Below the pieces are notes generated by a model. That model worked only from the letters and a program-made list of their open reading frames with translations, was not told where the DNA came from and did no database searches. A stretch of DNA of 64,000 nucleotides. Origin: Asaia lannensis NBRC 102526 (lineage in GTDB: Bacteria; Pseudomonadota; Alphaproteobacteria; Acetobacterales; Acetobacteraceae). Positions 28,849 to 31,138 of this stretch are shown here, piece by piece; position 1 is the first letter of the stretch; every line of letters starts with the position of its first letter. The stretch spans positions 186,001 to 250,000 of the forward strand of contig NZ_JAMXQU010000002.1 of the NCBI RefSeq assembly GCF_024054035.1. The letters are read 5' to 3'. Both the position numbers and the translations under genes were made by a program.

Positions 28849-28956
28849 TCAGAGACGAAGATAGGTCAGCGCAAAGAGTGAAATCATAACCACTGACAGA
28901 CCGCCGACCAGCCCGACGATGCGTCCCTGACGTCTGGACAAGTGATCGATCTTCAT
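28849..28956 (-). CDS. 35-residue membrane peptide downstream of ctaB (CoxF-like position)
   Basis: The frame starts at an ATG that overlaps the ctaB stop (ATGA), and encodes 35 residues: a basic N-terminus (MKIDHLSRRQGR) and one membrane helix (about 13-32, IVGLVGGLSVVMISLFALTY) ending in LRL. Many alphaproteobacteria carry a short single-helix protein, often called CoxF, right after ctaB in their cytochrome oxidase operons, with a basic N-terminus, one helix and a terminal arginine-leucine. Size, topology and place fit, but the sequence is too short to prove homology. Translational coupling to ctaB argues that it is made. Confidence 0.6.
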   Translation of the reverse strand: MKIDHLSRRQGRIVGLVGGLSVVMISLFALTYLRL

Positions 28957-29897
28957 CATGGGAACAACACCCGGTCAATAAGAAGGGCCGAAAACAGCAG
29001 GAACAGATAAGCCAGCGAATAACGAAACGCATAGCGCGCAGGCTTGTCCGCATCCAGACTGACGCCGCTTGCGTCCTGACGGTCCATCAGAACACGCAGG
29101 GCAAACCAGACAAAACCCAGGCCGAGCAGTGTGGCACTGACCGTGTAGATCATGCCGCACAGATGCAGAAAGGACGGCACCAGGGAAACCGCGAACAGAA
29201 TAAGCGTATAGACGAAGATATTCCAACGCGTATGACGCGCGCCCTTGACCACGGGAAGCATGGGAATGCCAGCCTTCGTGTAGTCCTTGCACGCATAGAG
29301 CGAGAGCGACCAGAAATGCGGTGGCGTCCACAGGAACACGATCGCAAACATGACCACTGGCAGGACGCTCATCGAGCCCGTCGCAGCGGCCCAGCCGATC
29401 ATGGGAGGGAACGCCCCTGCCGCCCCGCCAATAACGATATTCTGGGGCGTGCTACGCTTGAGCCACATCGTATAGATGACGGAATAGAAGAAGATCGAAA
29501 AGGCGAGAATACCGGCAGCAAGGGCATTGCTCGCAAGCCAGAGCAGCGCAACCGAGGCCAACGACAGAACGATTCCGTAAATCAGCGCTCCATCGGCATC
29601 CATACGCGCGTCAGGGATCGGACGCACCGATGTGCGCTTCATGACAGCGTCGATGTCGCGATCGTACCACATATTGATAGCGCCTGCGGCACCTGCGCCG
29701 ATGCATATGCACAGCATATCGATCAGGCCGAGCGGTACGGATGGCCATTGCGGCGCAACAGCCATGCCGGCAACACCCGTGAAGACCACCAGTGAAATCA
29801 CGCGCGGCTTAAGCAGAGCCAGCCAGTCGCGAAGTGTCGCGCCTTGCGTTTTGTCGAAGACCGACTCTCCGGATGTCACGCTCTGCGAGGCGCTCAT
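28956..29897 (-). CDS. ctaB: Protoheme IX farnesyltransferase (heme O synthase)
   Basis: CtaB (CyoE) attaches a farnesyl chain to heme B to make heme O in the inner membrane. The 313-residue protein is a UbiA-type prenyltransferase with about nine helices. It shows the first aspartate-rich motif in NMWYDRDIDAVMKRTSVRP, the LLKPRVISLVVFTG opening helix, and the FLWTPPHFWSLSL and CKDYTKAGIPMLPVV segments typical of heme O synthases. The ATG at 29897 overlaps the stop of the COX1-like gene (TGATG), so the two are coupled. Acetic acid bacteria respire through a bo3-type ubiquinol oxidase, which needs heme O; that oxidase is not in this window. Confidence 0.95.
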   Translation of the reverse strand: MSASQSVTSGESVFDKTQGATLRDWLALLKPRVISLVVFTGVAGMAVAPQWPSVPLGLIDMLCICIGAGAAGAINMWYDRDIDAVMKRTSVRPIPDARMDADGALIYGIVLSLASVALLWLASNALAAGILAFSIFFYSVIYTMWLKRSTPQNIVIGGAAGAFPPMIGWAAATGSMSVLPVVMFAIVFLWTPPHFWSLSLYACKDYTKAGIPMLPVVKGARHTRWNIFVYTLILFAVSLVPSFLHLCGMIYTVSATLLGLGFVWFALRVLMDRQDASGVSLDADKPARYAFRYSLAYLFLLFSALLIDRVLFP

Positions 29898-31138
29898 CAG
29901 CGTGTCGCCCTGGCCAGTTGGCGCATGGGCATAAGCAGTCGCATGCCGAGAAAAGCCACGCATATGAGCGACATCGTCATCCCCCCCTCACCGATGCGCT
30001 GCAAAACCGGCAATGCGGGCATCATGGCAAGCAACGCCACGCCCATCGAAACGAGATGAATGCGACAAAGCGAAGACGGCGCGGCAATTTCCGGGAATAC
30101 CGCCTGCCATTTGTAGTAGCATCCGAACAGGGCGAAAACGGCACCGAACATCATAGCCGAGTGAAATGCTTCCGGACGTGTCGGGAAAAGCCCGAGCACC
30201 CAGCCTGCGGAGAGCAGGAGCATCGCCGGAAAACTCCAGGAAAGCGCATAGGTCATGACGAAGCTGCGTCTCCAGAGCGATGCGCAGATCATGACCATAA
30301 TGGCGAGGCTTGGCACCGCAACGCCCACACCAAGAAGCCAGCCGTCAGAGAGCCCTGGAACAGTCACTCCATGGGCCCAGACAACCGAAACCCCAAGCGA
30401 GGCGATCGCCATCAGCACAGGCAGGACAATTCTGGAACGAAGCGACTGGAATGCGACAAGATTGGCAATCGCCCCCAGCGCAAGCTGAACGACAAGAGCA
30501 AGCACCGGAACCTGCGCCCGCCCAAGCCAGTATTGTGCTGTCGGCAGAGCGTCACGCCCAGCCACGACATCATGAGCAAGACCAGCGAGAAGCACCGGCG
30601 TCACAACGATCAGTCCAAGCGAGGCAAGCAATTGCGACCATGCAAACGGGGTAAGATCCCGAAAACGCACATCGCGGCATTCAAGGCATTTGATGACCGT
30701 CGTTACCGCCAGAAGAGCGGATCCGACACACCAGAGCGCCAGCGACGCGATAAAGGCTGCCGGCACATGGGCGCCCCAGACGGCCGCGAACGCTCCGAGA
30801 AGAAGGGCAAGAAAAGCGATCCGGTCGAAACAGATCATGGCTGGGGGCAATGGGGTCAGCTCGTTCGGCAGAACCAGACGCCCCATACCACCGATGAAAG
30901 CAGGAACAAGAACAAAGAGATCGAGAAGCAGACCGTGGCTCAGGCTATGAAACGGTCCGGCTCTCTGGGCGAACAATCCAAGAAATCCCCCAGCCAGACC
31001 GCAGAAAAGCGAAAGGCCGAGAAAAGCTGCGCCATCCCCACGAAAACCGGCGGCCTCGCTGTGTCTCGAAATCGGTGAATGTAACAAGACCCGTTCCTTA
31101 TTCCGTTCCTGAGGTCCCGATACCACCGGTATCGTCAT
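29897..31138 (-). CDS. Degenerate cytochrome oxidase subunit I-like protein
   Basis: The 413-residue membrane protein aligns by eye with COX1 (CtaD) over most of its length. Matching blocks are SHGLLLDLFVLVPAFIGGMG (residues 67-86; helix II of COX1, with His68 at the low-spin heme position), RFRDLTPFAWSQLLASLGL followed by PVLLAGL (158-187), VVWAHGVTVPGL (252-263), and AFHSAMMFGAVFALFGCYYKW (324-344). Active-site residues have been lost: the HPEVY copper ligand motif is absent, the paired histidines read His256-Gly, and the HFH triad reads Ala-Phe-His326, so the heme a3 ligand is gone while the low-spin pair His68/His326 remains. It cannot reduce oxygen by the known mechanism. The protein is also shorter than COX1 (about 530). 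It is coupled to ctaB and the small peptide. Confidence 0.8.
   Translation of the reverse strand: MTIPVVSGPQERNKERVLLHSPISRHSEAAGFRGDGAAFLGLSLFCGLAGGFLGLFAQRAGPFHSLSHGLLLDLFVLVPAFIGGMGRLVLPNELTPLPPAMICFDRIAFLALLLGAFAAVWGAHVPAAFIASLALWCVGSALLAVTTVIKCLECRDVRFRDLTPFAWSQLLASLGLIVVTPVLLAGLAHDVVAGRDALPTAQYWLGRAQVPVLALVVQLALGAIANLVAFQSLRSRIVLPVLMAIASLGVSVVWAHGVTVPGLSDGWLLGVGVAVPSLAIMVMICASLWRRSFVMTYALSWSFPAMLLLSAGWVLGLFPTRPEAFHSAMMFGAVFALFGCYYKWQAVFPEIAAPSSLCRIHLVSMGVALLAMMPALPVLQRIGEGGMTMSLICVAFLGMRLLMPMRQLARATR

What the first reader, a model, noticed from the sequence alone, without database searches (positions are those of the whole stretch)
29897..31138. COX1-like protein that keeps the low-spin heme ligands but has lost the oxygen-reducing centre
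The minus-strand product aligns by eye with cytochrome oxidase subunit I. Compared with the known COX1 ligands, His68 (helix II) and His326 (second His of the HFH triad) are kept; these bind the low-spin heme. Lost are the HPEVY copper ligand and its tyrosine, the second histidine of the HH pair (His256-Gly), and the first His of HFH (now Ala324), which binds heme a3. The pattern is not random decay: the frame is intact over 413 codons and coupled to ctaB (heme O synthase). It suggests a former oxidase subunit kept as a one-heme membrane protein, perhaps a heme O carrier, an assembly factor or a redox sensor for a bo3-type oxidase. Acetic acid bacteria are known to use ubiquinol oxidase, which fits loss of cytochrome c oxidase function.
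Basis: partly seen in the sequence, partly recalled or inferred. Interest (0 to 1): 0.82.

Follow-up and report, generated by a model that had tools for sequence, protein, structure and literature searches.

The report
Oxidase subunit reduced to one heme
Acetic acid bacteria carry a remnant of the oxygen-consuming enzyme cytochrome c oxidase that has lost its oxygen-reducing centre but keeps, in every intact copy examined, the two histidines that hold the enzyme's other heme, which suggests it has been reused as a heme-holding membrane protein beside the gene that makes heme O.

Summary
Window 29897-31138(-) encodes a 413-aa protein descended from CtaD/COX1, in an Asaia genome; its stop codon overlaps the ctaB start (TGATG). 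It does not look like decay. Across 95 distinct homologues, some about 20% identical to it, only four of the 184 positions that are invariant in functional CtaD and still present stay invariant: the low-spin heme histidines (H68, H326) and two tryptophans. CuB ligands, the Tyr, the K-channel Lys and the high-spin heme His are lost or vary. dN/dS is about 0.17; the AlphaFold model matches COX1 (Z 33). ctaB follows it in 50 of 51 genomes (one cut by a contig end). [quoted passage not shown] our data contradict "all" for the low-spin pair. Best reading: a one-heme membrane protein receiving or holding heme for CtaB and the quinol oxidase. Heme binding is strongly inferred, the hand-off role only moderately. 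One genome (G001) keeps ctaB in the same gene block without it, so it is not strictly required. No experiment exists here.

The parts
29897..31138 (-). COX1-like (CtaD-derived) 413-aa protein; 12 membrane-length helices by my count of the predicted helices
30935..30937 (-). codon of His68, helix II low-spin heme ligand, kept
   Evidence: 95 of 95 distinct homologues
30161..30163 (-). codon of His326, helix X low-spin heme ligand (second His of HFH), kept
   Evidence: 95 of 95 distinct homologues
30638..30640 (-). codon of Trp167, invariant
30377..30379 (-). codon of Trp254, invariant (Trp of WAHH)
30509..30511 (-). Val210, place of the HPEVY CuB His (lost)
   Evidence: His in 0 of 95
30368..30373 (-). 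His256-Gly257, place of the CuB HH pair; the first site is H/K/D/R/Q/N in 93 of 95, the second varies
30167..30169 (-). Ala324, place of the high-spin heme His (lost)
   Evidence: His in 2 of 95
28956..29897 (-). ctaB, heme O synthase; start ATG overlaps the stop of the COX1-like gene (TGATG)
   Evidence: NCBIfam heme o synthase 334 bits, cut-off 246; overlap read; one match in this genome
31215..31913 (-). SAM methyltransferase directly upstream; conserved neighbour
   Evidence: Methyltransf_11; upstream on the same strand in 61 of 61 named loci with the COX1-like gene

Best explanation
The gene is the old ctaD of the lost cytochrome c oxidase, stripped to a 12-helix scaffold with one bis-histidine heme site. 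Shown: descent from CtaD (fold, profile, synteny), loss of CuB, heme a3 and K-channel sites, invariance of the low-spin pair, purifying selection, and overlap with ctaB. Strongly inferred: it binds one low-spin heme; in Asaia this must be heme b or o, since no heme A synthase was found. Moderately inferred: it works beside CtaB as a heme acceptor or holding site, taking newly made heme O (or presenting heme b) and passing it to CyoB of the bo3/ba3 quinol oxidase, a job like that of Surf1 for other oxidases. The logic is that CtaB once delivered to this very protein, and the low-spin site is the first one filled during normal oxidase assembly. My split: descent and loss of the oxygen centre 0.97; one low-spin heme 0.85; hand-off role 0.4. 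The confidence given is for the whole chain.
For: Fold and descent; a CtaD profile scores above a CyoB profile (built from only two sequences) in 60 of 60. Ligand pattern. Selection: dN/dS median 0.17, maximum 0.36 in 57 usable of 66 within-genus pairs; ctaB 0.05 in 64 of 66. ctaB directly downstream in 50 of 51, the exception cut by a contig end; one-base stop/start overlap. On the CtaB tree the COX1-like state needs one change (69 rows), though the branch support is only 69. SURF1 found in 0 of 55 genomes with the gene (51 plus four found) and in 173 of the other 194; CtaG_Cox11 in 0 of 24 tested with the gene. Heme A synthase absent in 5 of 5 Asaia and present in 24 of 51 genomes with the gene, so heme A is not needed. 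All 51 have at least one COX1-family match over the Pfam cut-off. G210, in the same genus group as four genomes with the gene, lacks it together with ctaB and every COX1-family match. Low-spin heme forms first in subunit I; CtaA and CtaB form a complex; Surf1 is a heme chaperone (PMC9145763 and PMC5249081, passages seen).
Against: G001 has ctaB and two COX1-family matches but no COX1-like gene between the same neighbours, so it is dispensable there or was never deranged there. The COX1-like protein evolves about three times faster than CtaB, which is loose for a dedicated partner. SURF1 loss and the gene's state are both features of one clade, in effect one event; and E. coli, which makes a bo3 oxidase (recalled), is among the 12 of 14 control genomes without a SURF1 match, so a bo3 oxidase needs no Surf1 substitute. 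No coordinates were available to measure the His-His distance or the heme pocket. No heme, partner or phenotype data.
Confidence: 0.4

Rival explanations
1. Scaffold: it stabilises CtaB in the membrane, with the heme as a structural cofactor and no transfer.
For: Proposed in PMC10715153 (passages). Overlap with ctaB and adjacency in 50 of 51.
Against: G001 keeps ctaB without it. A pure scaffold does not predict that the two heme ligands outlast nearly every other position.
Confidence: 0.23
2. Redox device: a quinol- or oxygen-responsive one-heme cytochrome b, as electron relay or sensor.
For: A lone bis-His site in a COX1 scaffold. The old first HH site is polar or charged in 93 of 95.
Against: No soluble or signalling domain is attached (one search finds only COX1). 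It derives from CtaD, not the quinol oxidase. Linkage to ctaB is unexplained.
Confidence: 0.19
3. The histidines are kept for folding or helix packing, or bind a metal ion, and no heme is bound.
For: Heme binding is inferred from alignment alone; W167 and W254 are equally invariant without a known cofactor role here.
Against: Only the two heme-pair histidines survive completely among 12 columns that are His in all functional CtaD rows; the others drop to 0-85%. Three aligners agree on the heme positions.
Confidence: 0.1
4. Decaying remnant kept only because its translation drives ctaB.
For: Fast evolution relative to ctaB; overlapping start; one frame-broken copy, L085.
Against: dN/dS about 0.17 across seven groups; open frames in 60 of 61 named loci; invariant ligand pair.
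Confidence: 0.03

Closest known systems
Deranged COX1-like protein beside ctaB in Acetobacter (PMC10715153, citing Matsutani et al. 2014)
   Same: Same gene by position and description: COX1-like, without an oxygen centre, clustered with ctaB, in acetic acid bacteria.
   Different: The paper says all conserved metal-binding residues are missing; here the low-spin heme pair is kept in 95 of 95 distinct proteins. It proposes a structural role; we favour a heme-binding role.
CtaD, subunit I of aa3-type cytochrome c oxidase (A-family heme-copper oxidase)
   Same: Fold, gene position before ctaB, low-spin heme histidines.
   Different: No conserved CuB ligands, no heme a3 His, no Tyr, no K-channel Lys; shortened loops.
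CyoB, subunit I of bo3 quinol oxidase
   Same: Same superfamily; uses the heme O that CtaB makes (recalled).
   Different: Separate gene; the COX1-like proteins score lower with a two-sequence CyoB profile than with CtaD in 60 of 60.
Surf1 heme chaperone
   Same: Proposed job only: holding heme for oxidase assembly.
   Different: No SURF1 match in the protein; SURF1 not found in any of the 55 genomes with this gene.

Membership tests
COX1/CtaD homology family (PF00115, by descent) | Fold and profile homology to subunit I | tested here: met
   Z 33.6; profile E 5e-73; hhalign E 8.6e-59. The single sequence stays under the Pfam cut-off, 16 against 34.8 bits.
Heme-copper oxidase catalytic subunit I | Two histidines for the low-spin heme | tested here: met
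   95 of 95 at both positions
Heme-copper oxidase catalytic subunit I | Three CuB histidines | tested here: not met
   His in 0, 36 and 8 of 95; the window keeps only His256
Heme-copper oxidase catalytic subunit I | High-spin heme His (first of HFH) | tested here: not met
   His in 2 of 95; Ala324 in the window
Heme-copper oxidase catalytic subunit I | Cross-linked Tyr and K-channel Lys (A family) | tested here: not met
   Tyr 0 of 95, Lys 0 of 95
Heme-copper oxidase catalytic subunit I | Oxygen reduction activity | not testable with these tools
   Needs purified protein; ligand loss makes it very unlikely
Surf1 (PF02104) | SURF1 domain | tested here: not met
   Pfam scan of the protein up to E 10 finds only COX1
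Heme A synthase CtaA/Cox15 (PF02628) | COX15-CtaA domain | tested here: not met
   Pfam scan of the protein up to E 10 finds only COX1
One-heme membrane cytochrome (functional class) | Bound bis-His heme | not testable with these tools

The most novel reading that the evidence does not exclude
A terminal oxidase catalytic subunit was turned into a dedicated heme O acceptor and chaperone: the low-spin heme pocket is kept as a loading dock for CtaB, in the place of Surf1 across the acetic acid bacterial clade, feeding bo3/ba3 quinol oxidases.
Probability: 0.3. Interest if true: 0.8.

Novelty: new variant of a known kind. Interest (0 to 1): 0.62.

Why it matters
How hemes are inserted into oxidase subunit I is described as unresolved (PMC5249081, passage). 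A COX1 scaffold carrying only the low-spin site, kept across a large clade and overlapping ctaB, would be a natural system in which to watch that step without the oxygen chemistry. It also corrects the printed statement that all cofactor ligands are gone. [quoted passage not shown] by locus tag this is presumably the same gene, named as if it were a working oxidase subunit.

Tried and rejected
Rejected: random decay; descent from CyoB (with a CyoB profile of only two sequences); a sequencing or frame artefact (open frames in 60 of 61 named loci). A wider origin was looked for: of 192 class-level genomes, the listed best matches with a frame of at most 452 aa were only this genome, G040 and G122, all of this family; two other short frames (486 and 493 aa) start within 13 bases of a contig end. 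The list was cut at about 150 rows, so low-scoring copies elsewhere are not excluded.

Led nowhere: the profile A1 had no stretch conserved enough for a collection scan. A search for Gluconobacter transposon screens gave nothing on this gene (listing only). Matsutani et al. 2014, the primary report, is not held, so I know it only through PMC10715153. I found no paper reporting the retained low-spin pair in searches (listings, plus passages of nine papers; a tenth, PMC4007555, gave no passage); that is not proof of absence, above all because the 2014 paper could not be read.

Rows dropped before counts. L046 (cut by a contig end), L085 (frame-broken), functional fragments L157-L159, and 19 duplicate COX1-like rows (114 to 95). 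Ten of the 30 functional CtaD loci were not used because BLAST with the window protein did not reach 1e-4; L148 had no COX1 in the piece fetched; 9 of 66 COX1-like pairs and 2 of 66 ctaB pairs were dropped for dS outside 0.05-1.5. One search used wrong ctaB frames in some Asaia pairs and crashed; one search replaces it. The 16 genomes were picked by me mostly because they had shown no COX1-like match, so their ctaB count is not an unbiased test.

On rechecking I mended the Acetobacter count (17, not 18), added the weak support of the CtaB branch, the E. coli control for SURF1 and the selection of the genomes, and shifted some odds by 0.01-0.02 for the SURF1 control.

Full report
What is there. 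On the minus strand at 29897-31138 lies an open frame of 413 codons. Its last base is shared with the ATG of ctaB (TGATG; sequence printed). ctaB is a heme O synthase by NCBIfam (334 bits, cut-off 246) and gives the only match in this genome. The nearest named relatives are Asaia species, so the window is taken to be from Asaia. One same-genus genome held here, G085 (contig length 3,198,265), has the size given for A. bogorensis NBRC 16594 in PMC4596401 (passages).

It is a COX1 by descent. One sequence alone barely reaches Pfam COX1 (16 bits, cut-off 34.8) or PDB subunit I (E 0.1). As a family it is unmistakable: hhalign against 11 functional CtaD gives E 8.6e-59, and a profile of 61 members finds R. 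sphaeroides subunit I at E 5e-73, against 1.4e-32 for E. coli bo3 subunit I. The AlphaFold model (pLDDT 90.5, pTM 0.89) has 12 membrane-length helices by my count and aligns with oxidase subunit I at Z 33.6, 364 residues, 3.3 A. A CtaD profile outscores a CyoB profile in 60 of 60, the CyoB profile being built from only two sequences.

Distribution and context. By single-sequence search, 51 of 249 genomes of the family have it; profile and locus checks add four (G056, G117, G122, G173). ctaB follows directly in 50 of 51; the remaining one is cut by a contig end. The same script found ctaB in all 30 functional CtaD loci fetched, so the COX1-like gene sits where ctaD sits. A ctaB-based scan of named genomes kept 80 loci (adjacency is therefore by construction in these); 61 carry the COX1-like gene (Asaia, Swaminathania, Gluconobacter, Bombella, Acetobacter, Gluconacetobacter, Komagataeibacter, Commensalibacter and others), 18 carry functional CtaD or a piece of it (Acidocella, Acidiphilium and others), and one piece shows neither. 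On the CtaB tree the COX1-like state needs one change over 69 rows, but the branch has a support of only 69; the fork that also takes in G001 has 94. One origin is thus likely, not proven. A methyltransferase and a gene that I take from memory for a glutathione synthetase lie upstream on the same strand in 61 of 61.

Which residues are kept. In the merged set of 95 distinct COX1-like proteins and 35 functional CtaD, 226 columns are invariant in the functional set and 184 of them are still present in most COX1-like rows. Only four of these stay invariant: window H68, W167, W254 and H326 (whose window numbers are 17 higher because they count from the open frame's start). H68 and H326 are the low-spin heme ligands by three alignment methods. 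The HPEVY His is kept in 0 of 95, the HH pair in 36 and 8, the Tyr in 0, the K-channel Lys in 0, the heme a3 His in 2. The first HH position is polar or charged in 93 of 95 (H 36, D 24, K 21, R 8, Q 2, N 2), which I cannot explain. Two alignments of different, overlapping samplings list seven and six invariant columns; both contain H68 and H326. Column roles (ligands, channels) are textbook knowledge of the A-type oxidases, not from a call.

Selection. Within seven groups, 57 usable of 66 pairs give dN/dS 0.06-0.36, median 0.17; ctaB in the same loci gives a median of 0.05 (64 of 66 pairs). One of 61 named copies, in a close relative (Asaia platycodi draft, L085), is frame-broken by a single missing base relative to L084; error or real is not known.

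Correlates. Heme A synthase: no match in 5 of 5 Asaia, present in 24 of 51 genomes with the gene. SURF1: 0 of 55 with the gene, 173 of the other 194; but 12 of the 14 control genomes of that call, E. coli among them, have none either, so lack of SURF1 is not peculiar to carriers of this gene. CtaG_Cox11: 0 of 24 with the gene, 2 of 3 functional controls. All 51 have at least one COX1-family match. Sixteen genomes, picked mostly because they showed no COX1-like match, were checked for ctaB: seven lack it (G029, G034, G066, G070, G076, G116, G210) and these seven have no profile match either. Only G210 is known to share its genus group with carriers; it lacks ctaB and all COX1-family matches. 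Against the link: G001 has ctaB and two COX1-family matches but no COX1-like gene at the place; methyltransferase and ctaB are adjacent there, in the same neighbourhood. Its two profile matches (best 2.9e-38) are presumably its two COX1-family genes; I did not fetch them. It may have lost either the deranged gene or the original ctaD. These correlates come from one clade and count as few independent events.

How it most likely works. CtaB's original customer was CtaD. In normal assembly the low-spin heme forms first, then heme a3, then CuB; CtaA and CtaB form a complex, and Surf1 serves as a heme chaperone (PMC9145763, PMC5249081; passages). In the acetic acid bacteria tested no SURF1 or CtaG_Cox11 was found, and quinol oxidases take the heme. 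A CtaD frozen at the first step, with only the low-spin site, is well placed to hold heme next to CtaB and pass it to CyoB. That last step is inference, and E. coli shows that a bo3 oxidase can be made without Surf1. The scaffold and redox-sensor rivals remain open.

What is known already. PMC10715153 (passages, outline and part of its reference list; [quoted passage not shown] 2014, which is not held. So the gene is not new. What is new, as far as searches show, is that two of those residues, the low-spin pair, are strictly kept in Acetobacter (17 of 17 named loci) and in the intact copies of the other genera examined.

Noticed in passing
G001 / L170: Same gene neighbourhood as the window (glutathione-synthetase-like, methyltransferase, ctaB, Tim44-like) but with the COX1-like gene missing: a natural deletion or independent loss.
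   Followed up: partly
G210: A 1.7 Mb, 99% complete genome in the same genus group as COX1-like carriers with no COX1-family, ctaB or heme A synthase match.
   Followed up: no
G029, G066, G116: Each has one COX1-family match, a weak one (E about 1e-41 to 1e-42), and no ctaB or heme A synthase match; the protein behind that match was not examined.
   Followed up: no
L163: A MAG titled Asaia bogorensis carries a functional ctaD and its CtaB falls far from Asaia on the tree; probably mislabelled.
   Followed up: partly
window 29834-31078 (+): An open frame of 414 codons runs antisense across nearly the whole COX1-like gene; most likely a by-product of base composition.
   Followed up: no
window 30371-30373 (-) and the same column in relatives: The former first HH copper ligand is replaced by H, D, K or R almost at will (93 of 95 polar), at a copper-ligand position of the oxidase.
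   Followed up: partly
L085: In the A. platycodi JCM 25414 draft the COX1-like frame is broken by one missing base relative to A. siamensis; sequencing error or real is not known.
   Followed up: partly
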